DNA from: Apostichopus japonicus
Taxonomy: Eukaryota; Echinodermata; Holothuroidea; Aspidochirotida; Stichopodidae
Assembly (NCBI RefSeq): GCF_037975245.1
Contig: NC_092577.1
Coordinates: 671,001 to 735,000 of the forward strand
Reading direction: 5' to 3'
Length of the DNA stretch: 64,000 bases
This document shows, in pieces, positions 8,648-61,023 of this stretch (positions within the stretch are counted from its first letter, which is position 1; the number at the start of each line of letters is the position of its first letter). Made by a program: the position numbers and the translations under genes. The notes beneath the pieces are model-generated. The model worked only from the letters and a program-made list of their open reading frames with translations, made no database searches and was not told the DNA's origin.

Positions 8648-10317
8648 TTATTCAACAGTCTCTTTAATTTCATTCACAGATGGAATAAACTCTCTTAGTT
8701 TTCTTGCTATCCTTGTCGCTGTTTCTTTCTTCTCACTTGTTTTTGATTCGAAGAATATGAACTCGTTTAAAGACAGAAGCTCATTATCTAGAAAGAAGGA
8801 AAAGAATACAAAAATCGTCAATATTCAAATAATTATGATAACTAGTTAAAATAAATAACACATCTAAGAACATGACTAAATAAAATGATCATAAATACAA
8901 TTAGTTAATAATTACAACAGGTCAAAGGTCATTTGGGAAGAATCAACATCTCATTGCAGTAAAAGAACAAAATAATTTCAAAATCCAATCAGCACAATTA
9001 TTGCGCATGTGGGTTTGTGTGTGTGTATTAGCCTAAAAATGGTAACTACAGTGTATAGGTTAAGGTCAAGGGTATACTGTTGACTAAGTTGTAAAGGAAA
9101 TGAAAATGGTCATTTGGATTGGCGAGGAATGCGCTGGTACTTTAATAAATAACTAATTTATAAAATGTTACATTCCTAAGAAGTCGACCCTCATCACAGA
9201 AACTTACTCTGAGAGACTACATATTATTCATAATATACACTTGGTACATGTGCCTACAACAAAATGGCTATTAGTGTACTCCAACGAGAAACTTCCAGGC
9301 GAAATAAGCTCGTCTTGTGAAAACTTTTAAATATTTAAGAATCAAAGTGGTTGATACATTTGAGCTCTTTACACACACCAAAGAAAAACATACACTCACA
9401 CACACGCACACAAACATATACAAAATGAAAATGTAGTAATTGAATATATTATCTTACCATCCAAATCTGCTTGATCTAGAAGCCTTACAAATTCTCTGAC
9501 ACTATTGTTGTTGAATTGCACCATTGTCCATTCACACGCATCTATAAAACCATCTTCATTTATATCGAATCTGAGGAAGTCTTCTTCTGGTGTCATTCCT
9601 TCGAGATGATCGAACAAAGATCTGGAAATAAGTGAACACAATAAATAAGCTAAATGGACACAATAAATAACTTGAGGCAATCGGCTTCACTCTTCAAGAG
9701 CATCGTTCAGTTCTTAAATTGTAATGTTATTGTCACAGAACTTGTCAACAGTCTCCAAAACGTCAGTTGATTAAAACAATAAGTTCCTGCATTAAGTTTA
9801 CACCCACCATACTCTCTTGAAGGACGTTTCTAGCTTTGCCTACTTTGCATAAACGAAACTGGACGGAAGCCATTGTTGTTTATGATATTTTTAACGGTTC
9901 ATAGATATATGCAAATCGAGACTTTATGGTTTAAAAGGAAATAAAATCGTAGACACCATTTGTCAGGTTAGCTGACATAAAAACAACTTTGCATCCAAAC
10001 TAGGTGTAATGCTTCATGAAGAGCCATCCAGTGTCTTAGGGGTAAACAAAGGGTAACAAAGAAACCACCCACACATACTGGAACTTTCGGCTGATATAAG
10101 CCATAATATTGTAACATGCGGACACATAAACAAAGAAAATACGTTACCTTTTAGATTTGCTGTTGTAGTGCGATGCCGGAGGTATATAATTAGCTCCGAG
10201 AAATCCTTTACTAGGATTACTCTTCTTATCTGTAGACTGGCTTTGTGGGCCACACCCTAGCACAACTGAAGTAATACCTAAGAGAAGTAAAAGAGTCTGA
10301 GAGAGGAACGATTCCAT
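8648..10317 (-). CDS. Secreted paired EF-hand precursor, array copy 1
   Basis: Minus-strand gene with exons 10317-10148, 9621-9458 and 8787-8648, predicting 157 residues. Residues 1-21 are a signal peptide (MESFLSQTLLLLLG then TSVVLG, cleavage before C22). Residues 22-57 are polar and end in KSKR. EF-hand 1 loop is D76-E87 (DINEDGFIDACE) and EF-hand 2 loop is 109-120 (DLDDNELLSLNE), both with good Ca2+ ligand positions. The C-terminal tail is charged. Introns are phase 2 and phase 1 with GT..AG borders. The start is chosen because the signal peptide follows directly and a TATA box lies about 90 bp upstream. Relative to copies 2 and 3 it has N at loop-2 position 11, V in EFVRLL and G in HLEGM. 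The family is not recognised; a secreted calcium-binding role is inferred from the domains. Confidence 0.82.
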
Positions 10318-10392
10318 CGTTATCAGGTTCTTGTTTGATGAGCAGAGCTGAGCAATAGAGTGGACGTTTGATGACAATGATAATTGTTGGAA

Positions 10393-11030
10393 CAGAACAG
10401 GAGTTTATAAAGGGTACAATTTCCTTCATTATATCAAACAAGAAGGATTTAACACATTACGCTCGTTTACGTCATGGTATCTCCGACGTTGCTATACCCT
10501 TTCCCTTTTTTAATATGCGTCATATGACTATAGTTATCTAATACTGGGAACTACCATTAATAATCAGGAAAAGACACTATTCGATTGTTTGTTTGAATAG
10601 GAGTTTGAACAGGAGTTTATAAAGGGTACAATTTCCTTCATTATTTCAAACAAGAAGGATTTTAACACATTACGCTCGTTTACGTCATGGTATCTCCGAC
10701 GTTGCTATACCCTTTCCCTTTTTGAATATGCGTCATATGACTATAGTTATCTGATACTTGGGAAGTGCCATTAGTGATCAGGAAAAGACACTTTTCGATT
10801 ACTTGTTTGAATAGGAGTTTGAACAGGAGTTTATAAAAGGTACAATTTCCTTCATTATATCAAACAAGAAGGATTTTTGCACATAACGCTCGTTTTACGT
10901 CACGGCTTCTCCGACGTTGATATATCTTTATTCCTTTTTTAATATGAGTCATATGACTATATTTATCTAATACTGGGAAATGACACTAGTAATCAGGAAA
11001 AGACACTATTCGATTGCATGTTTGAACCTT
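10393..11030 (-). promoter_or_regulatory. Promoter of copy 1: three tandem repeats of about 210 bp
   Basis: Three direct repeats start near 10393, 10607 and 10823. Each holds a minus-strand TATAAA (proximal one at 10404-10409), a TTTACGTCA word (CRE-like TGACGTAA on the minus strand; the third repeat reads TTTTACGTCACGG) and a GCGTCATATGAC or GAGTCATATGAC word. The proximal TATA would place transcription start roughly 55-65 bp before the start codon. Whether the outer repeats act as enhancers or alternative promoters cannot be told. Confidence 0.7.
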
Positions 11031-12689
11031 TGCATTGTCAGATCATTTAAACTGTCACCCTCTTCCTAACTTTACTTCTAAAAGTAGCACTGTCGACCAG
11101 GGGGGTAGGAGCCGGGCACCAGGGGCACGTGCCCACCCCCACTTTTTTTTCCAAAATAGCAAATGTGCCCTACTGGTAAATAAAATGTGCCCCTTTGATG
11201 AAAACCTGTCTTTTGGATATCTTAAGCCTTTATTCATTTTAATATTTTATCTTAATTATTTATTTTTAGACTGCACATGCTATTTTTAAAATGGCATCCT
11301 ATATCTTTCTGTAGCACGGTTAACAATAAACAATCTCAATAAATAAAAAATCAGTGTTGCAGCGCACCATTATAGTATTGATAGCATACTAACACATCAT
11401 ATATATTTTAGTGATGTGGCCGGTGTGTATCGGTTTATAGCATAACGAGTGGTGGCTGTGGAATGAGGAAGTGCCACTCTGATGTTGTGTCCCCCACTTT
11501 TTGGACAATTTCCCACCACGATTCCATTGGTGACGTCGGGGAAACCCCGCGTTTGTCATACCATACGTGGTTATTTTTTTCAGGTTAAGATCAAGTCAGA
11601 AGTTGCAAAGTGTCTTTCGTTACTTGGGGAACTTCTTATTTACGTTTTATTCACGAATGTACCACACCAATCAAATAAAACTCCAGTCAAACTTCGGAGG
11701 AGTAGGAGGAGAGTAGGAGGGCATAGGAGAAGGGGTGGAGGGGGAGCAGGAACAAGGGGAGGGGTGAAGGAGGGGAAAGAGGGAGCAGAATTGTTGGGGT
11801 ATTTCCTAAAATTACTGTAATTCTTGTCAACTTTAAGGCCACTGGCAGGCTTTTTGTGTTCTTTCGTTACGCGTTATTGAACTTTTTTCACATATTCATC
11901 AAGAGCGGATGTCCAACACAGATTTTGTGGCACCTATACAAGCCTGGTAGAATTTAAAAGGATATGTTAGCCAAACAATGTGCTTAGTTCATCAAACTGT
12001 GCAAACCAACCAACTTCTGAGCAATCGAGGACATGTTTCCGTTAACTGCTGTGACAATGGAATGAATTGAAAGGTCAATATTCTATATATCTGTAAATCC
12101 TGTCAATCTCCATGATTTGTAATGGGTCTTTTGTATTTAGATGTAACTAAAAATTTTAAGGACATTTTAGTGTTTACAAGGAAACATGAATATACTGTTA
12201 AATTAATTTAAAGCAAACCTGTCATGTGAGGTCCTTCCGAAATATTTTAATAGGAACCAGGAAATGAAGTCGTGTTAAGTAGTCCTTTGTTAATTCACTC
12301 AAGGCGAATATCGCTGTTCGTCTGTTTCTCGACTGATTAAACTTCAATTACCCGCTGAATGCACCTTTTTTCTGGGTACCTTAATGTTACTCTTAGGAAA
12401 CAGATGCAGTATCTTGCTACTTGAGTGGGACAGCGATTCTGGAAACCGCCCATTAATTGAGTTTCTATTATATTTTGGCGATCATACCGAATGAGGATAA
12501 TTAATGAAATGTTTCACAAACACTTTTTTCAACTTTACTAATATGTTTTAGCAAAAGAGACAATGTACCATAAATCATTGTGCCATATTCAATTAAATCA
12601 AGTAGTTGAAGCTCTCCAACAACTTGCAAGAAACATATTCCCTTCAAAAGTGTGTTAGTCTAAAGCGAAGAAATCTTGTTTATTTCTGC
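11031..12689. other. Spacer between units A and B
   Basis: No gene seen. From about 11100 to 11515 lies a block starting AGGGGGGTAGGAGCCGGGCA that is also in units B and C (about 17700-18110 and 24285-24695). Units D and E have a different sequence of about 600 bp at this place. A GTAGGAGG-type purine-rich run follows near 11695-11790. The remainder is AT-rich and conserved between units. Confidence 0.6.
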
Positions 12690-14110
12690 CATTAAATCAC
12701 AATGATGTACATTTGTTAATACATAGTTATAGCAATGAGGCAGCGGGACCAGAAGTGCGATACTTTTCGAGTCTGGTCCCCAGCAAAGTAAAACGAGAAA
12801 ATACAATGTTATATAGAGAAAAGAAAATACCAAGAAAACACAAAGCAAAAGGACACACAAAGGGGTTTAACAGAACTGGGAATGGAAACATTAATACAAA
12901 GCTCATAACAAGGCAGAACTATACGAAAAAAGAGTCATTGTTTAGATAATGTTTAAGATGTCGTTTATAAGATGAAAGTGATTTGCTATTTCTAATGTTT
13001 TCACTTAGAGAATTTCAGAGGGCGACACCAGACCATCTAACCTGCGAGAGATACATATGAGTCCTTGATATAGGTGTTTGTAACATATTATAAGAACGAG
13101 TGTTGTATGAATAGTATTTATTATACTATTATAATGAAAAAAGTATGAAAAAAATCTGGGAGTGACCCATTATAAAACCTAAAGAGAAAAATCCTATTTA
13201 TATTTATAGAGCTCATTTAGGGTAAGCAAGTTAAAGTTTTTGAAAAGGGTGCAGAACGCGTGAGATAAAAGAATAGTTGTAATAATAATAAATGAACTTA
13301 TAAAGCGCTAAAATCTACGAAGTATTCAATAGCGCTGTACAACCCTAATAGAACGCCAACTTGAAAAATGAGTCTTCAAGCAAGACTTGAACTGACTGAG
13401 AGTGGGAGAACTCCGCACAGATATGGGCAGACCATTCCAGAGCTTGGGCCCGGCTTATGGAAAGGCACGGTCGCCATAGGTTTTCAGTTTAGTTCTGGGA
13501 AAAGTGAGAGTGAGTGTATTTCTAGAACGCAAGGTATAACGAGTATTGACCTGGAAGGACAGATCGTCTGACAAATAGGCGGTTGTAACCTATTAATACA
13601 TATGCAACATGTTTGCTGATGATAGAAACATGTTTTTCACTTTAGTTTTAAATCAATATACAATCCTAGAAATTTAGCATAATCGGATACACATTCCATC
13701 ACAAATTACTGAGACTTTTTATTAGTCACAAAATCTGTTGTCAAACACCATTAATGTTGTTTTACTTATTAAGTGACAATCGATTCGATTTTAGCCGGTC
13801 AGAAAGTTTGAAGAATTCGTTTCTGACAATTTGAAGAGCATTCTCTAAAGTTTGTGTTGGATAAAAAGAGTAGTGTCATCAGCAAACATAATAAAGGAAA
13901 CTTTATGCAAAGACGTGTAAATATCATTTATATACATAATAAAAAGTAGTGGTCCTAAAATGGATCCCTGTGGAAAGCCAATATTGCAAGAAATACGTGA
14001 CGAGATTACACCATTATACGACACAAACTGATAACGAAAAGTAAATAACTCTGAAACCAGGTTAAAGATTTTTTCGTCCGACAACCAAAGATAAAACTCG
14101 GTAAATGATA
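12690..14110 (-). mobile_element. LINE fragment, unit B
   Basis: Same element as in unit A. The RT palm part at 13845-14084 contains GFPQGSILGPLLF and FADDTTLF. It is interrupted by a separate insertion at 13283-13581 and by stops, so it is a relic. Confidence 0.82.
13283..13581 (-). mobile_element. Retroposed 3' end with (TTA)n tail, unit B
   Basis: A 299-bp insertion in the LINE relic, flanked by GTTGTAA at 13276-13282 and 13582-13588. Read on the minus strand it ends in AGCGCTTTATAAGTTCA followed by TTATTATTATT, a tail typical of CR1/L2-type LINEs and of SINEs that use them. It occurs in units B and C only; A and D show the uninterrupted site. An open frame on the plus strand is incidental. 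Confidence 0.7.
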
Positions 14111-14876: not shown

Positions 14877-14928
<52 letters not shown>

Positions 14929-15295: not shown

Positions 15296-16916
15296 TTATT
15301 CAACAGTCTCTTTAATTTCATTCACAGATGGAATAAACTCTCTTAGTTTTTTTGCTATCCTTGTCGCTGTTTCTTTCTTCTCATTTGTTTTTGATTCGAA
15401 GAATATGAACTCGTCTAAAGACAGAAGCTCATTATCTAGAAACAAGGAAAAGAATACAAAATTCTTCAATATTCAAATAATTATGATAACTAGTTAAACT
15501 AAACAACACATCTAAGAACGTAACTAAATATCATGATCATAAATACAAGTAGTTACTAATTACAACAGGTCAAAGGTCATTTGGGAAGACTCAACATCTC
15601 ATTCCAGTAATTAAAAAAACTAAATAATTTCAAAATCCAATCAGCACAAATATTGCGCTTGTGTTTGTGTGTGTGTGTGTGTGTGCGCGGGATAGCCTAT
15701 AAATAGATTAGGTCAAGGGTAATTAACTTTCATTAATCACTAATTAAAAAAATGGTATATTGCCAAGTCGTAGACCCTCATCACAGGAATCTTACTTTGA
15801 TGTTTGTTTGTTATTCATAATATACACTTGGTACATGTGCCTACAACAAAATGGCCGTAAGTGTACTCCAACGACAAAATTACAAGCGAAAAATAAGCAC
15901 GTCTTGTGAAGTCTTTTTAATATTAAAGAATCAATTTAAGTGGTTGATACATTTGAGCTAACTCTCTGATCCCTTTACACACACAAACGAAAAAACATAC
16001 ACTCACACACAAACATATACAAAATAAAAATGTAGTAATTGAAGATATTATCTTACCATCCAAATCTGCTTGATCTAGAAGCCTTATAAATTCTCTGACA
16101 CTATTGTTGCTGAATTGCACCATTGTCCATTCACACGCATCTATAAAACCATCTTCATTTATATCGAATCTGAGGAAGTCTTCTTCTGGTGTCATTTCTT
16201 CGAGATGATCGAACAAAGATCTGGAAATAAGTGGACACAATAAATAAGTTAAATGGACACAATAAATAAATTGAGGCAATCGGCTTCACTCTTCAAGAGC
16301 ATCGTTCAGTTCTTAAATTGTAATGTTATTGTCACAGAACTTGTCAACAGTCTCCAAAACGTCAGTTGATTAAAACAATAAGTTCCTGCATTAAGTTTAC
16401 ACCCACCATACTCTCTTGAAGGACGTTTCTAGCTTTGCCTACTTTGCACAAACGAAACGGGACGGAAGCCATTGTTGTTTATGATATTTTTAACGGTTCA
16501 TAGATATATGCAAATCGAGACTTTATGGTGTAAAAGGAAATAAAATCGTAGACACCATTTGTCAGGTTAGCTGACATAAAACCAACTTTGCATCCAAACT
16601 AGGTGTAATGCTTCATGAAGAGCCATCCAGTGTCTTAGGGGTAAACAAAGGGTAACAAAGAAACCACCCACACATACTGGAACTATCGGCTGATATAAGC
16701 CATAATATTGTAACATGCGGACACATAAACAAAGAAAATACGTTACCTTTTAGATTTGCTGTTGTAGTGCGATGCCGGAGGTATATAATTAGCTCCGAGA
16801 AATCCTTTACTAGGATTACTCTTCTTATCTGTAGACTGGCTTTGTGGGCCACACCCTAGTACCACCGAAGTAAGACCCAAAAGAAGTAAAAGAGTCTGAG
16901 AGAGGAAAGATTCCAT
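15296..16916 (-). CDS. Secreted paired EF-hand precursor, array copy 2
   Basis: Exons 16916-16747, 16220-16057 and 15435-15296 on the minus strand join into 157 residues. The order is signal peptide 1-21, polar segment 22-53, basic KSKR at 54-57, EF loop 1 at 76-87, EF loop 2 at 109-120 (DLDDNELLSLDE) and a lysine/glutamate-rich tail to E157. There are only two cysteines, C22 just after the signal cleavage and C86 inside EF loop 1. Intron 1 is 526 bp and intron 2 is 621 bp. The stop codon lies within AATAAA. Exon sequence is identical to copy 3. SNNS replaces NNNS between the hands compared with copies 1, 4 and 5. Confidence 0.84.
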
Positions 16917-16990: not shown

Positions 16991-17627
16991 AACAGAACAG
17001 GAGTTTATAAAGGGTACAATTTCCTTTATGATTTCAAACAAGAAGGATTTTAACACGTTACGCTCGTTTACGTCATGGTATCTCCGACGTTGCTATACCC
17101 TTTCCCTTTTTGAATATGCGTCATATGACTATATTTATCTGATACTGGAAAATGCCATTAGTAATCAGGAAAAGACACTATTCGATGGTTTGTTTGAATA
17201 GGAGTTTGAACAGGAGTTTATAAAGGGTACAATTTCCTTCATTATTTCAAACAAGAAGGATTTAACACGTTACGCTCGTTTACGTCATGGTATCTCCGAC
17301 GTTGCTATACCCTTTCCCTTTTTGAATATGCGTCATATGACTATATTTATCTAATACTGGAAAATGCCATTAGTAATCAGGAAAAGACACTATTCGATGG
17401 TTTGTTTGAAGAGGAGTTTGGACAGGGGTTTATAAAAGGTACAATTTCCTTCATTATATCAAACAAGAAGGATTTTTGCACATAACACTCGTTTTACGTC
17501 ACGGCTTCTCCGACGTTGATATATCTTTATTCCTTTTTTTAATATGCGTCATATGACTATATTTATCTAATACTGGGAAAGTCCATTAGTAATCAGGAAA
17601 AGACACTATTCGATTGCATGTTTGAAC
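16991..17627 (-). promoter_or_regulatory. Promoter of copy 2: three tandem repeats
   Basis: Repeats begin near 16991, 17210 and 17420. The proximal minus-strand TATAAA is at 17004-17009, about 90 bp before the start codon. The first two repeats keep the TTTACGTCATGG word; the third has TTTTACGTCACGG and a GGGGTTTATAAAAGG variant of the TATA region. Confidence 0.7.
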
Positions 17628-21880: not shown

Positions 21881-23501
21881 TTATTCAACAGTCTCTTTAA
21901 TTTCATTCACAGATGGAATAAACTCTCTTAGTTTTTTTGCTATCCTTGTCGCTGTTTCTTTCTTCTCATTTGTTTTTGATTCGAAGAATATGAACTCGTC
22001 TAAAGACAGAAGCTCATTATCTAGAAACAAGGAAAAGAATACAAAATTCTTCAATATTCAAATAATTATGATAACTAGTTAAACTAAACAACACATCTAA
22101 GAACGTAACTAAATATCATGATCATAAATACAAGTAGTTACTAATTACAACAGGTCAAAGGTCATTTGGGAAGACTCAACATCTCATTCCAGTAATTAAA
22201 AAAACTAAATAATTTCAAAATCCAATCAGCACAAATATTGCGCTTGTGTTTGTGTGTGTGTGTGTGTGTGCGCGGGATAGCCTATAAATAGATTAGGTCA
22301 AGGGTAATTAACTTTCATTAATCACTAATTAAAAAAATGGTATATTGCCAAGTCGTAGACCCTCATCACAGGAATCTTACTTTGATGTTTGTTTGTTATT
22401 CATAATATACACTTGGTACATGTGCCTACAACAAAATGGCCGTAAGTGTACTCCAACGACAAAATTACAAGCGAAAAATAAGCACGTCTTGTGAAGTCTT
22501 TTTAATATTAAAGAATCAATTTAAGTGGTTGATACATTTGAGCTAACTCTCTGATCCCTTTACACACACAAACGAAAAAACATACACTCACACACAAACA
22601 TATACAAAATAAAAATGTAGTAATTGAAGATATTATCTTACCATCCAAATCTGCTTGATCTAGAAGCCTTATAAATTCTCTGACACTATTGTTGCTGAAT
22701 TGCACCATTGTCCATTCACACGCATCTATAAAACCATCTTCATTTATATCGAATCTGAGGAAGTCTTCTTCTGGTGTCATTTCTTCGAGATGATCGAACA
22801 AAGATCTGGAAATAAGTGGACACAATAAATAAGTTAAATGGACACAATAAATAAATTGAGGCAATCGGCTTCACTCTTCAAGAGCATCGTTCAGTTCTTA
22901 AATTGTAATGTTATTGTCACAGAACTTGTCAACAGTCTCCAAAACGTCAGTTGATTAAAACAATAAGTTCCTGCATTAAGTTTACACCCACCATACTCTC
23001 TTGAAGGACGTTTCTAGCTTTGCCTACTTTGCACAAACGAAACGGGACGGAAGCCATTGTTGTTTATGATATTTTTAACGGTTCATAGATATATGCAAAT
23101 CGAGACTTTATGGTGTAAAAGGAAATAAAATCGTAGACACCATTTGTCAGGTTAGCTGACATAAAACCAACTTTGCATCCAAACTAGGTGTAATGCTTCA
23201 TGAAGAGCCATCCAGTGTCTTAGGGGTAAACAAAGGGTAACAAAGAAACCACCCACACATACTGGAACTATCGGCTGATATAAGCCATAATATTGTAACA
23301 TGCGGACACATAAACAAAGAAAATACGTTACCTTTTAGATTTGCTGTTGTAGTGCGATGCCGGAGGTATATAATTAGCTCCGAGAAATCCTTTACTAGGA
23401 TTACTCTTCTTATCTGTAGACTGGCTTTGTGGGCCACACCCTAGTACCACCGAAGTAAGACCCAAAAGAAGTAAAAGAGTCTGAGAGAGGAAAGATTCCA
23501 T
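21881..23501 (-). CDS. Secreted paired EF-hand precursor, array copy 3
   Basis: Exons 23501-23332, 22805-22642 and 22020-21881 on the minus strand. The predicted 157-residue product equals copy 2 at every position I compared: signal peptide, KSKR at 54-57, two canonical EF loops and the tail ending KETVE. Introns also match copy 2 in length. The unit around it differs from unit B only in run lengths (one T, one C, two TAAA). It could be a very recent duplicate, a gene-converted copy or an assembly duplicate, so its existence as a separate locus is less certain than its coding structure. Confidence 0.76.
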
Positions 23502-23575: not shown

Positions 23576-24212
23576 AACAGAACAGGAGTTTATAAAGGGT
23601 ACAATTTCCTTTATGATTTCAAACAAGAAGGATTTTAACACGTTACGCTCGTTTACGTCATGGTATCTCCGACGTTGCTATACCCTTTCCCTTTTTGAAT
23701 ATGCGTCATATGACTATATTTATCTGATACTGGAAAATGCCATTAGTAATCAGGAAAAGACACTATTCGATGGTTTGTTTGAATAGGAGTTTGAACAGGA
23801 GTTTATAAAGGGTACAATTTCCTTCATTATTTCAAACAAGAAGGATTTAACACGTTACGCTCGTTTACGTCATGGTATCTCCGACGTTGCTATACCCTTT
23901 CCCTTTTTGAATATGCGTCATATGACTATATTTATCTAATACTGGAAAATGCCATTAGTAATCAGGAAAAGACACTATTCGATGGTTTGTTTGAAGAGGA
24001 GTTTGGACAGGGGTTTATAAAAGGTACAATTTCCTTCATTATATCAAACAAGAAGGATTTTTGCACATAACACTCGTTTTACGTCACGGCTTCTCCGACG
24101 TTGATATATCTTTATTCCTTTTTTTAATATGCGTCATATGACTATATTTATCTAATACTGGGAAAGTCCATTAGTAATCAGGAAAAGACACTATTCGATT
24201 GCATGTTTGAAC
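23576..24212 (-). promoter_or_regulatory. Promoter of copy 3: three tandem repeats
   Basis: Same arrangement as in copy 2, with the proximal minus-strand TATAAA at 23589-23594. Confidence 0.66.
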
Positions 24213-28231: not shown

Positions 28232-29886
28232 TTATTCTACAGTCTCTTTAATTTCATTCACAGATGGAATAAACTCTCTTAGTTTTCTTGCTATCCTTGT
28301 CGCTGTTTCTTTCTTCTCATTTGTTGTTGATTCGAAGAATATGAACTCGTCTAAAGACAGAAGCTCATTATCTAGAAACAAGGAAAAGAATACAAAAATC
28401 GTCAATTTCAAATAATTATGATAACTAGTTAAAATAAACAACACATCTAAGAACATGACTAAATATAGTGATCATAAATACAAGAAGTTACTAATTACAA
28501 CAGGACAAAGGTCACTTGGGAAGACATTTCAGTCCAGTAATTAAGAAACCAAATGTCAAAACTCATATAAGCAGAATTATTGCGCTTGTGCTTGTGTGTG
28601 TGTTTAGCCTGAAAATGTTCACTATAGTGTAGTTTGAGGTTAAGTTAGATTGACTAAGTTGTGAAGGAAATGAAAATGGTCATTTTGGATTGGCGAGGAT
28701 TTCGCTGGTACTTTAATTAACCACTAATTTAAAAAATGGTCCATTGTTAAAACGTCGACCCTCATCACAGGAAACTTACTATGAGAGACTACATATTATT
28801 CATAATATACACTTGGTACATGTGCCTACAACAAAATGGCTGTTAGTGTACTCTAAAGAGAAACTTCCAGGCGAAATAAGCTCGTCTGGTGAAGTATTTT
28901 TAAATATTTAAGAATCAAAGTGGTTGATACATTTGAGCTCTTTAAACACACCAAAGAAAAACATACACTCACACACACGCACACATATACAAAATGAAAA
29001 TGTAGAAATTGAATATATTATCTTACCATCCAAATCTGCTTGATCTAGAAGCCTTATAAATTCTCTGACACTATTGTTGTTGAATTGCACCATTGTCCAT
29101 TCACACGCATCTATAAAACCATCTTCATTTATATCGAATCTGAGGAAGTCTTCTTCTGGTGTCATTTCTTCGAGATGATCGAACACAGATCTGGAAATAC
29201 GTGGACACAATAAATAAGTTAAATGGAAACAATAAATAAATTGAGGCAATCGGCTTCACTCTTCAAGAGCATCGTTCAGTTCTTAAATTGTAATGTTATT
29301 GTCACAGAACTTGTCAACAGTCTCCAAAACGTCAGTTGATTAAAACAGTAAGTTCCTGCATTAAGTTTACACCCACCATACTCTCTTGAAGGACGTTTCT
29401 AGCTTTGCCTACTTTGCACAAACGAAACGGGACGGAAGCCATTGTTGTTTATGATATTTTTAACGGTTCATAGATATATGCAAATCGAGACTTTATGGTG
29501 TAAAAGGAAATAAAATCGTAGACACCATTTGTCAGGTTAGCTGACATAAAACCAACTTTGCATCCAAACTAGGTGTAATGCTTCATGAAGAGCCATCCAG
29601 TGTCTTAGGGGTAAACAAAGGGTAACAAAGAAACCACCCACACATACTGGAACTATCGGCTGATATAAGCCATAATATTGTAACATGCGGACACATAAAC
29701 AAAGAAAATACGTTACCTTTTAGATTTGCTGTTGTAGTGCGATGCCGGAGGTATATAATTAGCTCCGAGAAATCCTTCACCTTGATTACTCTTCTTATTT
29801 GCAGACTGGTTTTGTGGGCTACACCCTAGCACCACCGAAGTAAGACCCAAAAGAAGTAAAAGAGTCTGTGAGAGGAAAGATTCCAT
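28232..29886 (-). CDS. Secreted paired EF-hand precursor, array copy 4
   Basis: Exons 29886-29717, 29190-29027 and 28371-28232 on the minus strand give 157 residues. The N-terminal peptide is the most changed among copies 1-4: CSPQNQSANKKSNQGEGF against CGPQSQSTDKKSNPSKGF. The KSKR site and both EF loops (DINEDGFIDACE and DLDDNELLSLDE) are intact. Exon 2 begins SVFDH instead of SLFDH. Intron 1 is 526 bp as in copies 1-3 and intron 2 is 655 bp. The last sense codons differ by one base (GTAGAATAA) without a protein change. No disabling change is seen, so it should be functional. Confidence 0.82.
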
Positions 29887-35763: not shown

Positions 35764-36785
35764 TTATTCAACAGTCTCTTTAATTTCATTCACAGATGGA
35801 ATAAACTCTCTTAGTTTTCTTGCTATCCTTGTCGCTGTTTCTTTCTTCTCATTTGTTGTTGATTCGAAGAATATGAACTCGTCTAAAGACAAAAGCTCAT
35901 TATCTAGAAAGAAGGAAAAGAATACAAAAATCGTCAATTTCAAATAATTATGATAACTAGTTAAAATAAACGACACATCTAAGAACGTAACTAAATATAG
36001 TGATCATTAATACAAGTAGTTACTAATTACAACAGGACAAATGTCATTTGGGAAGACTAAACATTTCAGTCCAGTAATTAAGAAACCAAAAAAATGTCAA
36101 AATCCAGTCAGCACAATTATTGCGATTGTGTATGTGTGTGTGTGTTTAGCCTGAAAATGTTAACTACAGTGTAGGTTGAGGTTAAGAGTATAATGTTGAC
36201 TAAGTAGTGAAGGAAATGGAAATGGTCATTTGGATTGGCGAGGAATTCGCTGTTACTTTCATTAATCACTAATTTCAAAAATGGTACATTGCTAAGACGT
36301 CGACCCTCATCACAGGAAACCTTCTTTGATGTTTGCATGTTATTCATAATATACACTTGGTATATGTCCCTACAACAAAGTGGCTCTAAGTGTACTCTAA
36401 CGACAACAATTATGGAGAATTATGCTCGTCTTGAAAGGTATTTTTAATATTAAAGAATCAATTTAAGTGGTTGATACATTTGAGCTAACTCTCTGATCCC
36501 TTTACACACACAAACGAAAAAACATACACTCACACACACATATACAAAATAAAAATGTAGTAATTGAAGATATTATCTTACCATCCAAATCTGCTTGATC
36601 TAGAAGCCTTATAAATTCTCTGACACTATTGTTGTTGAATTGCACCATTGTCCATTCACACGCATCTATAAAACCATCTTCATTTATATCGAATCTGAGG
36701 AAGTCTTCTTCTGGTGTCATTCCTTCATGGTGATCGAACAAAGATCTGGAAATAAGTGGACACAGTAAATAAATAATTTATATAC

Positions 36786-36921: not shown

Positions 36922-37435
36922 CAACAATATAACAATATATAGATAGATGGGGGAGAATAAAATAGGGAAATATGGTACGCTGAATGTAAATCTTAACCAG
37001 CATAAGCGTTTTACTTAGCTGTTGGCAATTTTACCAGGCCTACCAAGAATTCCTGAGGTAAAAACAACTTTGCATCCAGACGAGGTCTAATGGGTAATTT
37101 ATCAAGCAATTCATAGATGTGTTTTGGATCTGAAGAGCAATTCAGTGTACTAGTACTAGTAGTAAACAAAGGGTAACAAAGATACCACCCACACATGCTG
37201 GAACTATCGGGTGATATAAGCCACATTGTTATAACATGCGGAAAGAAAACAAAGAAATAAGTTACCTTTTAGATTTGCTCTTGTAGTGCGATGCCTGACG
37301 TACATCATTAGCTCCAAGAAATCCCTTACTAGGATTACTCTTCTTATCTGTAGACTGGCTTTGCGGGCCACACCCTAGTACCACCGAAGTAAGACCTAAG
37401 AGCAGTAAAAGAGTCTGAGAGAGGAACGATTCCAT
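35764..37435 (-). CDS. Secreted paired EF-hand precursor, array copy 5
   Basis: Exons 37435-37266, 36745-36582 and 35903-35764 on the minus strand join to 157 residues with signal peptide, KSKR and two canonical EF loops. The N-terminal peptide differs in a block before the cleavage site: ANDVRQASHYKSKSKR where copies 1-4 have ANYIPPASHYNSKSKR. Exon 2 reads SLFDHHEGM. Intron 1 is 520 bp but much of it is replaced by a (TA)n tract. The core promoter reads TATATAAG instead of TATAAA and only one promoter repeat is present. It is the most diverged array member, yet no frame damage is seen. Confidence 0.8.
36789..36915. repeat. (TA)n microsatellite in intron 1 of copy 5
   Basis: Nearly pure TA with a TTATTATTATTA interruption near 36878. 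It replaces several hundred bases of intron found in copies 1-4. Frames of alternating I and Y are artefacts. Confidence 0.95.
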
Positions 37436-39740: not shown

Positions 39741-40679
39741 TTAATCATGTCCTTCTGGAATGTTGAGCCCATGAGGTTGAATGGTGCGAATGCGTTGCAT
39801 CCACAGCCTCTCTCTGCTGATTCGTACTAGGTCAGGATGGCTACCTAAGGATTCAATCCCCTGTAGGGACATGTCGTTAATGGTATGGTTGGGAAGTTTA
39901 AGGTTTTCTCCAACTGGGGTCTCAGTCTTCATGGTGTTGACTCTGGATCTGTGACCATAGAATCGCTACTTGAGGGTGGTTTTGGTTTCGCAAACATAAT
40001 GGATGCCGCAAACTCTACAAGATATCAGATATATATTACATTGGTGGTTGTGCAAGTTAGTCTTGTGTGTGAGCTGCATGCTGTGGCTGGTGATGGAATT
40101 GGATTCAACAATGTTGTGGCTGCAGATGATGCATCTCGAAGTACGATCACATTTGAAAGTACCATGCTGAATGGGTGTAGGATTAGAAGTTAGAGGTGGA
40201 ACAGCAGCACGCACAAGAAGGTCTCGTAAGTTACGGGGTCGTCTGTAGGCGAATATGGGGTTTTCAGGGACGGCTCGTTGGAGTCTATCTGAAGTGAGAA
40301 TGTTGTGGTTGTGCTGAAGAGGAGGAGGATTTGGGTGGAAAGTAACAACCAGGGGCAGCTTGTTGTCGCAATCTCGTCCCTTTTTGTTCTTCACTGCCAA
40401 AGTAGATGATCTGGAAAGGGAGCGGAGTCTCTGAATGGCTTCACGCACCCTTCTGGCACTATGGTCCCTGGCAGGAAGGTGATTTCCCAAAGCATCTGTA
40501 TGACGAGTCAAAGAGGAATTGTTAGAGTAAATGCTACGAAGACGAAGTGCTTGACTGTAGGCAGTTCCAGACTTGCAGTGACGGGGATTGCAGCTTGAAG
40601 AATTGAGATACTGGTGTGTGTCTGTAGGCTTGGTGTATAAGTCTGTAGAGAGAGAACCCTGTTCCTTGCGAACAGTCAC
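39741..40679 (-). pseudogene. Penelope-type RT C-terminus plus GIY-YIG endonuclease, interrupted
   Basis: The N-terminal part has the Penelope RT C-terminal signature LSTDLYTKPTDTHQYLNSSS. Next comes a linker with CDRTSRCIICSHNIVES, then the endonuclease region with NIYLISCRVCGIHYVCETKT and, after a TAG stop at about 39966, RFYGHRS and the C-terminal part to GLNIPEGHD. The glycine usual in YVGETK is a cysteine, and one in-frame stop separates the halves. Most of the RT is missing. It is a retroelement relic, not a host gene. Confidence 0.85.
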
Positions 40680-46040: not shown

Positions 46041-47439
46041 ATGGGTAGATTAAGACTTGCGCTTCTTATCTTCGTGTCAATGGTGGTGATAACTTGCTTA
46101 GTACAGGCAAGACCTAGTAGAAGTAAACACCATTGCAACAGCAGACAGGGCAAATATACAGCAAATTGTATAAGAACTAACGCACGGAGGAATAAAAATC
46201 GCAGAAAGGGAAGGTAAGGGACATTTTCTTAATTTATCTATCCATCTGTCCATCCATCCATCCGTCCGTCCGTCCGTCCGTCCGTCCGTCCGTCCGTCCG
46301 TCCGTCCGTCCGTCCGTCCGTCCGTCCGTCCGTCCGTCCGTCCGTCCGTCCGTCCGTCCGTCCGTCCGTCCGTCCTTCCGTCCGTCCGTCCGTCCGTCCG
46401 TCTGTCTGTCGGTCGGTCTGTCTGTCTGTCTGTCTGTCTGCCTGTCTGTCTATCTATCTATATATCTATCTATCTGTCTATCTATCTATCTATTTTGTTT
46501 TTATATCCATCTATCCATCTATTCATCTATCAATGTGTTCGTACGGGCCTATGCACTTGTTGTGTTTCTACTGAGAAACGTAGTTCGTTATCTGCTTTCC
46601 ATAACAATATGTCCCTTATTTTCAGATCTATCGTGGAAGAATCCCTTGAGTCCAGCTTTGCAGATAACATTTTAGCCAAACTACACAACAACACCAATGG
46701 AGTTTTGAATGAGAAAGACGTACATGTGGCGCCTTACACCAGCGAAGAAATTCAAGACTTTTCCAAAATGTTGGCTGAATCTGATATTGATGGTAAGCAC
46801 AAGTTTACAAAACGTTCTATTCAATCTGTTCAATCTGTTCAATCTATTCAATCTGTTCAATCTATTCAATCTATTCAATCTGATATTGATGGTAAGTACA
46901 AGTTTACAAAACGTTCTATTCAATCTGTTCAATCTGTTCAATCTGTTCAATCTGTTCAATCTGTTCAATCTATTCAATCTATTCAATCTGTTCAATCTAT
47001 TCAATCTATTCAATCTGATATTGATGGTAAGTACAAGTCTATTCCATACAATCTCAAAAGATGGACTGAAATTAAAGGTTAGTACAAAGGATCACTTATA
47101 TAAATTACGTTTGTGTTATTCAATCATAGGGCTGAATATATCCGTAATAGGAGTACTTAAAATGAAGAAATGAATATGGTCTGTTTTTGTCATTGATTCC
47201 TCTTATCAGAGTAAATATCTGTCTCAACAAGAGATATCGATCCCATATATACCCCTCCCATTCTCCCTCACCCTCACCCCCACCCCACCCTCACCCTCAC
47301 CCTCACTCTCACTCTCACTCTCACCCTCACCCTCACCCTCACCCTCTCCCTCACCCTCACTCTCACCCTCACCCTCACCCTCACTCTCACCCTCCACACC
47401 CGGCCCACACCCTCACCCTCACCCTCACCCTCTCCCTCT

Positions 47440-47486
<47 letters not shown>

Positions 47487-47749
47487 TCCCTCCACATCCG
47501 GCCCACACTAACATTCACACATCATCACCCTTTCACTGAACCCCTACCAATACCCATTTACACGTTTCCTGGTGGTCCTCAAACCCTCCGCCATCGTCAC
47601 ATTCAACCCAATCCTTGCTCCTAAATCCATCCATAATCTGAAAAGGTTAATTTACTCCTGTATGAAATATGATCTTATTAATGTTATTGTTTCTTCACCC
47701 CTCTTCTTTTCATACAGGTGACAATTGGGGATATTTGAAAGGAACTTAA
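46041..47749 (+). CDS. Divergent secreted EF-hand-like precursor (plus strand)
   Basis: Exons 46041-46213, 46626-46792 and 47718-47749 predict 123 residues with the same intron phases (2 and 1) as the array genes. Residues 1-23 are a signal peptide (MGRLRLALLIFVSMVVITCL, then VQA). A very basic segment with two cysteines follows, ending NRRKGR at the exon junction, then SIVEES as in the family's SLFDHL or SVMEEQ. EF loop 1 is degenerate (HNNTNGVLNEKD, 78-89). Loop 2 starts well (DIDGD) but runs into NWGYLKGT and stops, so the 12th-position glutamate is missing. It therefore probably binds calcium weakly or not at all. Two duplicated splice donors downstream of exon 2 could lengthen the protein in frame. 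Confidence 0.72.
46232..46512. repeat. (GTCC)n/(GTCT)n/(ATCT)n microsatellite in intron 1
   Basis: Long tetranucleotide tract grading from ATCC through GTCC to GTCT and ATCT, inside intron 1 of the plus-strand gene. Confidence 0.95.
46793..47036 (+). repeat. Duplicated exon end and splice donor with 9-bp coding-frame repeat
   Basis: The last bases of exon 2 plus its donor (TCTGATATTGATGGTAAG) recur twice downstream, giving donors at 46793, 46892 and 47027. Between them lie TTCAATCTG 9-bp repeats. The insertions are 99 and 135 bp, both multiples of three, and the frame stays open, encoding S-V-Q or S-I-Q tripeptides and two more SDIDGKY stretches. All three donors are phase 1, so any could join exon 3 in frame. 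Confidence 0.85.
47268..47500. repeat. (CCCTCA)n hexamer repeat in intron 2
   Basis: Hexamer CCCTCA with CTCTCA and CTCCCT variants. It resembles but is not the metazoan telomere repeat CCCTAA. Confidence 0.95.
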
Positions 47750-53428: not shown

Positions 53429-53436
53429 GCAAGGCT

Positions 53437-56440: not shown

Positions 56441-57000
56441 AGGATTGCTTCAAGTGTCTGACATGTCTATCTTGTATGAAAGAGCTGAAAAAGACAAACA
56501 GAATAGTGAAGAAACTACCATGATAGCATTCTCTGTTAAGGAGATATCACACTTTGAAGATTTCAAAATTTCTTTGCAAATGACTGGTGTAGAAAGAGTA
56601 ACTGTGAGGGTGTGATGTCACATCCTCACTTCCTTAACATGTGTCAATATATTTCATTAAAATATAATCACATTTTTTTTAACAAATCTAAAAAAATATA
56701 ATCAAACATTCTTCAGATGTTAAATCTCAAATACTTCCCTTGACACACATGAGATCTCCTGACGTATCTTTTGGTTGTAAGTCATAAAATCTTACAAAAT
56801 ATTTTAATCAAATAACAAAGACTTTTCAGGAATGTGAGGATATGACGTCACAGCTAGTCTGATTTCAGCAGTTTCTACGCAATCAGATAGAACTTTAAAC
56901 TTGAATATCTCCTAAACGGAAAAGGATATTTGAATAATTTCTTCACTATTGGGTTTCTTTTATGGTCCTCTTTCATATAAGATAACCATTTGTGACACCT
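56441..57000. mobile_element. MITE of the unit D family, copy 2
   Basis: Collinear with 31708-32264 over its whole length. It keeps TTAA on the left (56437-56440). The right end reads GTGACACCTGAACTAATCC with no TTAA, so the terminus there is altered or lost. Confidence 0.88.
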
Positions 57001-57773
57001 GAACTAATCCTTCCATGGTAACTCAGAGCGTTCGGCTTGCCTTATACCATCATTTATAACAAATGGATACTGTTTTCTCAGAGTTACTGCAGTTACGGAA
57101 TTTAATGGACAGGAGATATTTTTGTATGGAGATGTGTTTATGTAATTCTGGCCAAAAAAAAATCAATCATGCACAAGATAACAAGTTGAGACATCTGCTT
57201 ATGAATATGCATAGCTCCCAGCATCATAACCACTAATCACTACAAGGTGTGTATAGTAGGCCATGTGCGTATCTCAACTGCTTGTCTTACATGCACAATT
57301 ATGCTGAATATACATTTTGGATACATTTCTCATCTGTTGTACGGAAATATTAAACAGAACTGAGATTAATTCATTACTATCGTACCTTCCTTTCCCCCGG
57401 TTGCACAAGTCTCGGGTCATTTACGGTCCTCGTACGCCGAGACATTTGACCGTTGTTGTTAGGTAATCACTCACTCATCCTGTGAATTCACGGAACTGGC
57501 GGTGGTGAAGGGAACAGCTAATCCCCACCATGGGTGTGTATGCATTGTGTAATAGTGTTAGTTCGGCGCATCGGCTTCCCCTTACGAGAATTTGCAATTT
57601 GTACACGGATGTTAGACGTTGATTTCACCACTCCTCAACGAGGGAACAAATGTAAAAAGTAGGCTATATTGGGTAATATGGAAGCTGAAATCTGGCTTGG
57701 GAAGGATTTATGGACGGTTTCATTCAGCTCCAAATTTCTTCCAGGACTCAGACCTCGGTAGTTTGTGATTTGG
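57001..57773. other. Intergenic, no supported gene
   Basis: Sequence downstream of the minus-strand divergent gene. No AATAAA is close behind its stop codon. Confidence 0.4.
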
Positions 57774-60700
57774 TTAATACTCTTTTGACGTCAGATCTGG
57801 GATGAAATTGTCGATTTTAAATTCATTGAAAGATATCTGTTTATCACCTGAAAATGGAAAACATGAAAACTTTCGTAAAACATCAAACATTTGTCACAAG
57901 TCAAACAAAGTGTGCACAAGTCAAACAGTCGCTCCAGGGTCACCACACAGCGCCACATGTGCGTGTACCCTGGGGTACTATAAAGAGTGCTGCCATAAAT
58001 CAGGGCACGCAACTATAGTTTCAAGTTACCTCGTATATTTCCACATTAACACGAAGAGGGGCAATGGAGTTTAAGTGTCTTGCTTGCAGACACAACGTAA
58101 TGATGATATTGTCATAAACTCATTTCTTAGATCTCAAGTCTATTTACTTCGCCATTGGGCCACAATGTCCCTCCGTTTTACAAAGTGTTACACATTAACA
58201 TGTATAACACAAAGGGCAGGGTGGGGGAGGAGGGAGGAGGGGAGGATGGGGAGGGGAGGAGGGGAGGGGGAGGGGAGGATGGGGAAGGGGAAGGGGAGGG
58301 GAAAGGGGAGGGGCGGTGTAAGGGAGAGCGCACTAGAAAGCACGTCGGTGAAAGTTCGAGCTACTTTACAATCCTAACTGAGTCTCTTTGTTTGTATTTC
58401 AGGTTACAATTGCATTCAATTTAAGACAGCGCTTTCCAAACTTCATCATGAACTGAATGTAATACAGAGAAAAGTATATATAGAGAAAATAAATCTACGG
58501 AACTAGACAAACTGGGGATATCTATTTTTAAATATAGGTTATGATAGTTTTACAATTTAGTACAATACAACTATCTGTGGTCTAAATATTACAATATTAC
58601 ACAATTTCTTCTATCAAAAACAAATCAACCTGTTTTGTTTATTGATATTAATCTCGAGTAGTTTTTATAAATTTATTTCATTTCCGTCTTTTAATTAATA
58701 GCCAGCCCCCCTCCCCCCCCTCCCCCTCCCCCTCCCCACATATAAACACCGTTCACCACTTACCCTCTATACTATGATTTCGATTTCAATACTTTGAACT
58801 AGACGGGTATTTTTTTATAGTTTTAATGGTTATTTTCGTGACGTCATCCGAAATCTATTAAATGTTCTTACCATCAATATCAAGTTCATCCAACAGTTTG
58901 ATAAATCCCCGGATGTTGTTGCCGTATGGCGAACTCAACCATTCCAAGTCATCTATGAAACCATCTTCGTTGTGGTCTAGCAGGATAAATGTTTCTTTAG
59001 AGATAACTTGTTCCTCCATCACAGATCTGAGAATAAAGGAAAAGTTCAATTAAGCTAGCGAGAAACTTCAAATCCCTTATCTATGGGATTATAGGCAACA
59101 AAATCATATTCTAAGTCTGTGGGCCATTTACCCCAGAAGAAGGCATAAGCATTCATATTCCCATGCAAATCGTACGTATATTGGACATTTCATTTTTGCA
59201 TTTTTCTATTGAGGCTGGGTGGGGGATTGGGGATCAAATATCATGTCGTATTGGAGAAAGGGTGTAAGGGAACATTTTTGTAAAATTGAGGGTGCTATAT
59301 TTTGCAACTTTTCAACTGTTTAGTTTGTACCATATTTACATGTTGTATGGACTATTTACATTTGTTCTTTACGCACTAGTTATTCTTTACGTAATGTTTG
59401 TTTGTAATTGGGGTGGGGGAGGGATAAACCACATGTTTTTATTCTGGGCGACTGAAGTCCCCTATAGGTATACATGGTTGCTACCCGGTTTTTAACCTTT
59501 GCCTGCGAAGCCCAAGGCCGAGCAAGCCAACAATCCCGACCCCCCTCCCCCTCCCCTCCTCAACAGAAAAAACATTGGCCTATAAGAATGATAATGTTTC
59601 CACAGCAATAAACTTCTTTTTTGAGGGAGGGGGAGAGGGGGGGATAATTTAAGTCTTACTTGTGATCTACATGACTACATAATCATCCTAAAGAAGTGAC
59701 AAGACCAGGAAGTTTAACATAAACTGTGGCATGTATCTCACGACACAGCGTTGCCACGGTGATACAACCTGACCAGCACAGTCGTTCACTGTTCAATTCG
59801 GTTTCCTACTACTACACAATAGAGCTGGATTAGTTATTGTAGGTCATGTTTATAAAATGAAATGCATAATAACGCTTTAAACTTGATATCAAACCGTCTA
59901 CTTTTGGATTTTTCTTGCTATTAATTTAATAACCGCCTTTTTTATCTCACGGTTTAAGCCCGAATAGCATGCAACGATTTTTAACTGTGAGCCATTGACC
60001 GCTTCCGAATGCAATTCAAGAAGTGTACACATTACAAATTTAATCGCAAATGAACACAAAAATATATTTCGTATCAATTTTGTCGAGTAGGTCACTGACC
60101 CCAGTCTTCATGGTTAAGTTAAGATTTAGCATTTGTTCCCTTCATAATTCGTATGTTTACCAACAAATTTGTTAATAATCCATTAACCTATGCGGTTTAG
60201 TATTAAATTCTATAGGCGTAAAAGGACATAGTCTATGCTTACCACGCAAATATTTTGATCATTGTTTACAACTTTATTTTTATATACAATTGTATTATTA
60301 CTATAACGATGCTATAACGTGACGTCACAAGAACATTTGTAGATACATTCGATGATGCGAAAATGAAGGATACCGATCATATAGTGCACGTAGAGGCTGT
60401 ACAGCCGAATTATATCTGACGTCACTAAGAACAAGTTAAGTATGTGTGATAATGTACAATCAAGATACAAATCACATATTGCATGTACGGACTGAGCAGC
60501 CGAATTATATCTGACGTCACTAAGAACAATTAAGTTAACTATGTGTGATAATGTACAATCAAGATACATATCACATAGTGCACGTAGAGACTAGGCAGCC
60601 GAATTATATCTGACGTCACTAAGAACAAGTTAACTATGTGTGATAATGTACAATCAAGATACATATCACATAGTGCACGTAGAGACTAGGCAGCAGAATT

Positions 60701-61023
60701 ATATCTGACGTTACTAAGAAACCAATGTGTATAACATTCGACTAAGTACATTCATATGAACGCTGTACAGCCGCACATAGACATTGTGCATGAGTACGCC
60801 AGATTTTTCGGATATCTAACATATCAGGACTACAAAGAAATATTATAAATTTGTCAAAATCTTACCGTTTAGGCTTCTTCTTTGGAGCCAAAGTGGGGAC
60901 GTGATTTCCACCTTGGAATACGCCTTTCTTGGAAGAATGCCCGGCTCGATTATCACAGCCATACACCACAACAACAATTGTGATCATCAAAAACAGACTA
61001 AGGCGAATAATACCAGTTGCCAT
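57774..61023 (-). CDS. Divergent secreted paired EF-hand precursor (minus strand)
   Basis: Exons 61023-60866, 59026-58872 and 57847-57774 predict 128 residues. Residues 1-22 are a signal peptide (MATGIIRLSLFLMITIVVVV, then YG). The segment CDNRAGHSSKKGVFQGGN then leads to KKKPKR at 48-53, the same place as KSKR in the array genes. EF loop 1 is DHNEDGFIDDLE (70-81) and loop 2 is DIDGDKQISFNE (102-113), both canonical. Intron phases 2 and 1 match the family, and the second intron again cuts EF loop 2. Intron 1 (1839 bp) carries CRE-bearing tandem repeats and intron 2 (1024 bp) a G-rich run. The start was chosen because it opens the signal peptide; an upstream in-frame ATG would add a non-hydrophobic leader. 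Confidence 0.82.
58210..58320. repeat. GGGGAGG-type purine-rich run in intron 2
   Basis: Irregular GGGGAGG and GGGGAAGG copies. A matching C-rich run (CTCCCC) lies at 58705-58738 in the same intron, so the two could pair in the transcript. Confidence 0.8.
60312..60722. repeat. About 95-bp tandem repeat with CRE palindromes in intron 1
   Basis: The unit contains ATAGTGCACGTAGAGACT, CAGCCGAATTATATC and AACTATGTGTGATAATGTAC. The perfect CRE TGACGTCA occurs at 60320-60327, 60417-60424, 60512-60519 and 60611-60618, and a variant TGACGTTA at 60706-60713. The spacing is 95-99 bp. The array lies 140-710 bp from exon 1 inside intron 1, a plausible place for a regulatory element. Confidence 0.82.

What the first reader, a model, noticed from the sequence alone, without database searches (positions are those of the whole stretch)
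8648..61023. A clustered family of secreted EF-hand precursors with a basic cleavage site at the first exon junction
Seven three-exon genes share signal peptide, short polar peptide, basic site (KSKR, KPKR or RKGR) and paired EF-hands, with identical intron phases (2 and 1). The basic site sits exactly at intron 1, so exon 1 encodes a separable peptide and exons 2-3 a calcium-binding module. I do not know a named family with this plan. Release of an N-terminal peptide is inference from the motif.
Basis: partly seen in the sequence, partly recalled or inferred. Interest (0 to 1): 0.78.

Follow-up and report, generated by a model that had tools for sequence, protein, structure and literature searches.

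The report
Orpin gene array with basic cleavage sites
A sea cucumber carries a large cluster of genes related to Orpin, a known secreted calcium-binding protein linked to gut regrowth, and most of these relatives have a likely cutting site that could free a short, usually positively charged peptide, which has not been tested.

Summary
The anatomy is real. Seven three-exon genes (window 8648-61023) encode a signal peptide, a 31-36 residue peptide, a basic site split by a phase-2 intron, and an acidic EF-hand module split by a phase-1 intron. Exception: gene 6 (46041-47749) keeps the plan but has lost both calcium loops. The window fits Apostichopus japonicus. The family is not unnamed: it is Orpin, a secreted two-EF-hand family reported only from echinoderms and an acorn worm. 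I located the published Aj-Orpin gene on C18; it has the same three exons and phases and the motif ID[AV]CEW, which matches 16 times in 671 Mb, each time in this family. Searches find at least 27 family exon-2 copies (20 on C17, 7 on C18), against a published 'two-copy' count. Arg at the junction occurs in 19 of 19 C17 genes with an exon 1, and KR or RxxR in 18; Aj-Orpin itself lacks it. The predicted peptide is basic in 15 of 17 C17 genes measured; the module is always acidic. Cleavage is inferred only. The plan resembles NUCB2/nesfatin-1; kinship was not tested. Best reading: a processed, tandemly expanded branch of Orpin; a new variant of a known family.

The parts
10148..10317 (-). g1 exon 1: signal peptide + peptide CGPQ...KSK(R)
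9458..9621 (-). g1 exon 2: S-L-F...EF1 DINEDGFIDACE and first part of EF2
8648..8787 (-). g1 exon 3: rest of EF2 (DLDDNELLSLNE) and C-terminal tail, stop
16747..16916 (-). g2 exon 1
16057..16220 (-). g2 exon 2
15296..15435 (-). g2 exon 3
23332..23501 (-). g3 exon 1 (identical to g2)
22642..22805 (-). g3 exon 2
21881..22020 (-). g3 exon 3
29717..29886 (-). g4 exon 1
29027..29190 (-). g4 exon 2
28232..28371 (-). g4 exon 3
37266..37435 (-). g5 exon 1
36582..36745 (-). g5 exon 2
35764..35903 (-). g5 exon 3
46041..46213 (+). g6 exon 1: cationic two-Cys peptide ending RKGR
46626..46792 (+). g6 exon 2: degenerate EF1 (HNNTNGVLNEKD)
47718..47749 (+). g6 exon 3: truncated EF2, stop
60866..61023 (-). 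g7 exon 1: signal peptide + CDNR...KKKPK(R)
58872..59026 (-). g7 exon 2: EF1 DHNEDGFIDDLE
57774..57847 (-). g7 exon 3: EF2 DIDGDKQISFNE completed, stop

Best explanation
[quoted passage not shown] Each makes a secreted protein: the signal peptide is removed, leaving an N-terminal peptide (Cys-led in most types, not in g6 and P823) joined to an acidic two-EF-hand module. In this C17 branch a proprotein-convertase type site (KR or RxxR, followed by Ser, Ala in one) sits at the exon 1/2 junction, so the precursor is probably cut in the secretory pathway into a small, mostly cationic peptide and a mature anionic calcium-binding module of about 7-12 kDa that acts outside cells, as Orpin is proposed to do in regenerating tissue. 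Shown: gene anatomy, kinship to Orpin, conservation of the site within the branch, charge split, minimum copy number. Inferred: splicing, secretion, cleavage, calcium binding, and any function.
For: Species: the mitochondrial contig reads better with the echinoderm code than with table 5, the two codes tried; COX1-ND4L-COX2 order and ND1/ND2 on the COX1 strand, named by eye. The 671.58 Mb, 35-contig assembly matches a published A. japonicus one (671.60 Mb, 34 scaffolds). Kinship: a 33-base pattern for DEKISWQEFPD of the Aj-Orpin antibody peptide has one genome match, C18:17061493. The gene there has the published features: SEA|CS, loop starts 30 residues apart, end EFPDMNV (paper text). Its introns have phases 2 and 1, intron 2 at the same place inside EF2. 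ID[AV]CEW: 16 genome matches, 14 C17 copies and 2 C18 copies; 6 of 20 C17 and 5 of 7 C18 copies are not among them. Exon-2 searches both ways: A1 query, 20 C17 + 2 C18 of 22 matches; Orpin query, 7 C18 + 14 C17 + 1 other of 22. Site: P1 Arg in 19 of 19 C17 genes with an exon 1, KR or RxxR in 18; a rerun without demand on the end residues gave the same exon 1 for 6 of 6 genes; background at donor-like phase-2 sites 42/645, 25/150 or 5/16 by donor score. Charge: peptide pI 9-12 in 15 of 17 C17 genes, module 4.05-4.56 in all 17.
Against: Aj-Orpin, the only member with protein data that I read of, lacks the site (junction Pro; FRRD follows) and A2 has only a single Arg. Arg at a phase-2 junction is partly expected from the splice consensus. 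For genes outside the window the exon searches imposed phases 2 and 1, so their agreement in phase is not independent. Peptide codons between signal and site are near neutral among eight tandem copies (5 synonymous, 15 non-synonymous), so the peptide may be a mere propeptide. g6 and its duplicate differ by 0 synonymous and 6 non-synonymous changes in exons 1-2, so that type may be decaying. No RNA or mass-spectrometry data. EF profile score alone does not separate Orpin from generic EF-hands (41.7 bits; 36.6-43.5 bits among the 60 best of 427 PDB matches), and the cross-chromosome E-values are weak (0.03-1.4).
Confidence: 0.75

Rival explanations
1. The exon-1 stretch is only a propeptide or spacer: the basic site matures the secreted calcium-binding module and the released peptide has no function of its own. 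(This is a form of the best explanation, not an alternative to the cut.)
For: Peptide codons evolve at a near-neutral ratio (5 syn/15 nonsyn) while the signal peptide is tightly kept (10/1); difference p=0.0006 by Fisher test. In g1 versus P667 exon 1 shows 4 syn/17 nonsyn. Peptides differ in sequence and charge among paralogues.
Against: Blocks inside the peptide (Cys22, KK, GFLGAN, ASHY, KSKR) have no amino-acid change among the eight tandem copies; the two-Cys peptide of g6 keeps C-x10-C with ANCI(R/K) and RRKGR in the distant P823.
Confidence: 0.45
2. The site is not cut at all; the basic residues follow from splice-site sequence at a phase-2 junction and the protein works whole, like Aj-Orpin.
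For: At strong donor-like phase-2 sites Arg is common (9/16) and KR/RR or RxxR not rare (5/16). Aj-Orpin and A2 lack the motif.
Against: Arg is kept with CG|A and CG|G codons that depart from the donor consensus, and P2 or P4 is basic in 6 of 7 C17 sequence types.
Confidence: 0.25
3. A prohormone or antimicrobial-type precursor: the cationic peptide is the active product and the acidic EF module is its carrier or neutralising partner.
For: Charge split (peptide +2 to +14, module -7 to -16 in the KR/RxxR types listed, B1 excepted); g6 keeps exon 1 while its EF loops are degenerate; Gly before the basic residues in IGKR and RKGR would permit amidation (recalled rule).
Against: Near-neutral peptide codons in g1-type copies; no purifying signal between g6 and g6b; B1, A2 and Orpin peptides are acidic.
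Confidence: 0.2

Closest known systems
Orpin family (Aj-Orpin of A. japonicus; Orpin A and B of Holothuria glaberrima)
   Same: With the located Aj-Orpin gene: hydrophobic signal-like start, Cys right after it (not in g6 and P823), three exons with phases 2 and 1, intron 2 at the same spot inside EF2, ID[AV]CEW motif (in 14 of 20 C17 copies), EF2 loop with a non-Gly sixth residue.
   Different: C17 branch has a basic site at the junction, basic instead of acidic peptides in most genes, longer tails in g1-g5, and a larger tandem expansion; the Aj-Orpin junction residue is Pro. The H. glaberrima sequences were not seen.
NUCB2 / nesfatin-1 precursor
   Same: Precursor with an N-terminal peptide freed by PC1/3 and PC2 and a C-terminal part with two EF-hands, at least one with a non-Gly sixth position (passages of PMC10308643).
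   Different: NUCB2 is 396 residues, gives three products and has DNA-binding, acidic and leucine-zipper regions; the window proteins are 123-157 residues. Kinship was not tested.
SPARC/osteonectin
   Same: Extracellular EF-hand pair; named as closest cluster to Orpin in PMC9501386.
   Different: SPARC_Ca_bdg matches 3 of 12 family members and only weakly (best E 0.0096); the scan showed no follistatin-like domain.

Membership tests
Orpin family | Secreted protein with signal peptide | tested here: inconclusive
   Hydrophobic N-terminus by a Kyte-Doolittle window in the models scored (g6 not scored) and constrained signal codons in g1-type copies; no trained predictor was available, cleavage points were set by eye.
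Orpin family | Two EF-hands | tested here: met
   Both loops in g1-g5, g7 and the other C17 types listed; not met in g6. EF-hand Pfam models match 11 of 12 members at E<=0.1.
Orpin family | Gene structure of Aj-Orpin (three exons, phases 2 and 1, intron 2 inside the EF2 loop) | tested here: met
   Seven window genes and the located Aj-Orpin gene; for genes outside the window the phases were imposed in the search.
Orpin family | Shared private sequence motif and similarity both ways | tested here: met
   ID[AV]CEW 16 of 16 matches in the family; g6, g7, P630 and P823 types lack that exact motif. Exon-2 searches, weak E-values across chromosomes.
Orpin family | Restricted to Ambulacraria and clustering in a phylogeny | not testable with these tools
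   No eukaryotic protein collection; distribution taken from PMC9501386.
NUCB2/nesfatin | Nucleobindin regions beyond the EF-hands (DNA-binding region, leucine zipper) | tested here: not met
   Pfam scan of 12 members finds only EF-hand models, weak SPARC_Ca_bdg and one DUF at E<=0.1; proteins are far shorter.
NUCB2/nesfatin | N-terminal peptide released by prohormone convertases | not testable with these tools
   Site present; cleavage needs experiment.
SPARC | SPARC extracellular calcium-binding domain | tested here: inconclusive
   3 of 12 members at E<=0.1, best 0.0096.

The most novel reading that the evidence does not exclude
A branch of the Orpin family has become a multigene set of peptide precursors: each tandem gene delivers the same calcium-binding module with a different, fast-changing, mostly cationic N-terminal peptide that convertases release during injury or regeneration, so that the EF-hand module is a carrier and the exon-1 peptides are the signals or defence molecules.
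Probability: 0.18. Interest if true: 0.65.

Novelty: new variant of a known kind. Interest (0 to 1): 0.42.

Why it matters
The gene later named Aj-Orpin is among the ten most induced genes at 3 and 7 days of sea cucumber gut regrowth (tables seen as passages of PMC3735544; identity given in PMC9501386), and was described in A. japonicus as a two-copy gene, with no processing step in the parts I read. This shows at least 27 exon-2 copies on two chromosomes, most of the C17 ones with a convertase-type site. If cut, earlier antibody and expression work followed only one part of one branch, and the N-terminal peptides are untested candidates for regeneration or defence signals.

Tried and rejected
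Solved-structure and Pfam searches give only generic EF-hand relatives and do not name the family. Searches used a g1 protein with one extra residue at junction 2, from my first reading; one search also mis-set some exon ends of g1-g7. These were corrected. With the corrected g1 protein no Pfam model reaches its curated cut-off (member 1).

A disulphide that always tethers peptide to module was rejected: g7, P803, P630 and g6 have no module Cys. Exon shuffling of the g6-type exon 1 to C20 was rejected: two weak hits (E 0.28, 0.40) did not recur with the P823 query. A neuropeptide-family identity was sought in papers: two listed, of which I opened only PMC5627052, where the one EF-hand passage is a reference title. 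In the main text of the 2017 genome paper (PMC5638244) the terms EF-hand, calcium-binding and orpin do not occur (term search). No exon 1 was found for the copy at C17:28475519.

Bias: the first exon-1 finder asked for basic residues near the junction and the second for AG/CG ends; one search repeated six genes (P630, P803, P823, A1, A2, P667) without either filter, still with phase 2, donor score 6 or more, a hydrophobic start and at most 5 kb upstream, and found that exon 1 alone in all six (P823 with two starts).
Full report
What was checked. I rebuilt the seven genes from the window sequence. Five (g1-g5) are near-identical tandem copies on the minus strand at 8.6-37.4 kb, one (g6) is on the plus strand at 46.0-47.7 kb, and one (g7) is on the minus strand at 57.8-61.0 kb. 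All seven have three exons with GT..AG introns, intron 1 in phase 2 and intron 2 in phase 1. Exon 1 ends two bases into the Arg codon of KSKR (g1-g5), RKGR (g6) or KPKR (g7). Exon 2 starts with the last base of that codon and then Ser. Intron 2 falls inside the second EF loop. A TATAAA lies 92-93 bases before the ATG in g1-g4 and 101 in g6; g5 has a TATATAA variant, and none was found within 220 bases of the g7 ATG.

Corrections to the observation. g6 has lost the calcium ligands in both loops (HNNTNGVLNEKD, DIDGDNWGYLKG), so paired EF-hands hold for six of seven. g2 and g3 are identical across exons, introns and 500-base flanks. The genes g1-g5 are spaced 6.4-7.5 kb apart; one stretch of about 10.7 kb covering parts of two units recurs at 97.6% identity.

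Where it comes from. The assembly has 671,581,487 bases in 35 contigs and the window is C17:671001-735000. COX1 on the small contig C35 was read with table 5 and with table 9; table 9 (AAA as Asn) gives the familiar protein (comparison from memory). The order COX1-ND4L-COX2 with ND1 and ND2 on the same strand, genes named by eye, fits sea cucumbers or sea urchins (recalled). A published A. japonicus assembly has 671.60 Mb, 34 scaffolds and 23 chromosomes (PMC10344927, abstract and passages); with a mitochondrial contig this makes 35. I take the species as A. japonicus.

What it is. A paper search for sea cucumber EF-hand signal-peptide proteins led to Aj-Orpin (PMC9501386; search; text parts 1-4 of 5 read). 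Aj-Orpin is described as a 164-residue secreted protein with two EF loops at 117-128 and 147-158, signal cleavage SEA-CS, and homologues only in echinoderms and an acorn worm. The founding paper on Orpin (PMC9648499) is not held. I located the Aj-Orpin gene by a pattern for eleven residues (DEKISWQEFPD) of its antibody peptide: one match in the genome, C18:17061493. The gene model reads MARFLIFCLFLVITVVNLSEA|CSGS..., has loop starts 30 residues apart and ends EFPDMNV, as published; from the second Met it has 141 residues, and the published length and both loop positions are each 23 higher. It has three exons, phases 2 and 1, with intron 2 at the same place in the EF2 loop as in the window genes; its exon 1 was sought with phase 2 imposed.

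Kinship tests. (a) The pattern for ID[AV]CEW matches 16 places in the whole genome; 14 are exon-2 copies of the C17 family and 2 are C18 copies, one of them the located Aj-Orpin; the reversed control pattern gave 1. Six of 20 C17 copies and five of 7 C18 copies do not carry it. (b) Exon 2 of the C17 paralogue A1 finds 22 places: 20 on C17 and 2 on C18. (c) Exon 2 of Aj-Orpin finds 22: 7 on C18 (17.049-17.115 Mb), 14 on C17 and one elsewhere (C2, E 0.42). The cross-chromosome E-values are weak on their own (0.03-1.4 for one genome). A profile of nine C17 modules scores the Orpin module at 41.7 bits against 6.1 for the best of 200 shuffles, but the best 60 of 427 PDB matches to the similar profile A2, mostly calmodulins, score 36.6-43.5 bits. 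So the EF score shows only an EF-hand pair; gene structure and the private motif carry the family claim.

Size of the family. Together the searches give 20 exon-2 copies on C17 (16 of them at 630-824 kb, then two at 5.92 Mb and two near 28.5 Mb) and 7 on C18, 27 in all, a lower bound by the tool's own statement. Exon-2 copies are not all proven genes. PMC9501386 calls Aj-Orpin a two-copy gene. For the g1-type, 10 exon-1 copies pair with 10 exon-2 copies. I built 18 full C17 models, one of exons 1 and 2 only (g6b at C17:791 kb), and found no exon 1 for the copy at 28475519. Of the 7 C18 copies I modelled one.

The basic site. Among the 19 C17 genes with an exon 1, the junction reads KSKR in 10, KPKR in 2, RKGR in 3, IGKR, SIKR and PEKR in one each, and VAIR in one. 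Arg is therefore present in 19 of 19 and a KR or RxxR in 18 of 19. The split Arg codon takes four forms (AG|A, AG|G, CG|A, CG|G), two of which depart from the splice consensus. Aj-Orpin has CC|T, Pro, then FRRD. My first exon-1 searches were filtered towards basic or AG/CG ends; a rerun without those filters on six genes returned that exon 1 alone for each. A background estimate from open phase-2 donor-like sites in 214 kb of this DNA (family sites included) gave KR/RR or RxxR in 42 of 645, 25 of 150 and 5 of 16 sites at rising donor score. Six of eight sequence types, Orpin included, is above that, though the types share ancestry.

Composition. With signal cleavage set by eye, the predicted peptide has pI 9-12 in 15 of 17 C17 genes measured, and 4.05 (A2) and 4.95 (B1) in the others; modules are 4.05-4.56; the Orpin peptide is 4.05 (P773, whose peptide equals that of P766, and g6b were not in that call). 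By charge count in twelve representatives, KR/RxxR types have peptides of +2 to +14 and modules of -7 to -16, except B1 (peptide -2); A2 and Orpin peptides are acidic. g6 and the distant P823 share a strongly basic two-Cys peptide (net +13, +14); P823 has intact EF loops.

Selection. Among eight distinct g1-type copies (g3 left out as identical to g2, P667 left out as diverged): signal peptide 10 synonymous and 1 non-synonymous change (p 2.5e-5 for constraint), peptide 5 and 15 (p 0.37), module 8 and 12 (p 0.026). Signal versus peptide differ, p 0.0006; module versus peptide do not, p 0.50. g6 and g6b differ by 6 non-synonymous and no synonymous changes in exons 1-2, while the 5' flank and intron 1 differ at 5 of 140 and 51 of 384 positions, the intron being partly simple repeat. 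So exon 1 looks translated, with its signal constrained, but the peptide itself changes almost freely in the tandem copies.

How it probably works. The best-supported account is a secreted Orpin-like calcium-binding module made from a precursor that is cut at the exon junction. Whether the peptide is a discarded propeptide (which I hold most likely) or a product in its own right is open. NUCB2/nesfatin-1 shows that such a plan exists: PC1/3 and PC2 free an N-terminal peptide from an EF-hand protein (PMC10308643, passages). That is a likeness of plan; kinship is neither tested nor claimed.

Novelty. The family is known; the C17 array, its size, the exon-junction site and the cationic peptides are not mentioned in the parts of PMC9501386 that I read, nor did the paper searches list a paper whose title or abstract start points to them (most listed papers were not opened). 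Since the founding Orpin paper was not readable, I cannot exclude that it notes a similar site in Holothuria.

Changes on checking. The share of basic peptides was recounted (15 of 17). Confidence in the best explanation went from 0.80 to 0.75, because the phases of genes outside the window were imposed in the search and so are weaker support than first written, and to agree with the 0.25 given to an uncut protein.

Noticed in passing
window 46778-47017: A minisatellite in g6 repeats the end of exon 2 with its splice donor (DIDG|GTAAG) three times; the frame stays open through FTKRSIQSVQ-type repeats to 47082, so alternative donors could lengthen the protein.
   Followed up: partly
window 10395-11026, 16995-17626, 23580-24211: A 212-214 bp unit holding a TTTATAAA stretch is tandemly repeated three times just upstream of g1, g2 and g3.
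   Followed up: partly
C18:17.049-17.115 Mb (G000): A second array of seven Orpin exon-2 copies, two of them with the same exon-2 protein; the copy at 17115399 looks by eye to have a disrupted frame.
   Followed up: partly
window 39966-40679 (-): ORF that looks, from memory, like the end of a Penelope-type reverse transcriptase with the start of a GIY-YIG domain.
   Followed up: no
window 3562-4935: A 20-bp minisatellite of about 69 copies, open in several frames.
   Followed up: no
C17:729870 and C17:803542; C17:717645 and C17:791850: g7 and g6 each have a close second copy about 74 kb away, suggesting that a large block of the array was itself duplicated.
   Followed up: partly
G000:C29: A 31 kb contig carries five COX1-matching pieces alongside the full mitochondrial contig C35.
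   Followed up: no
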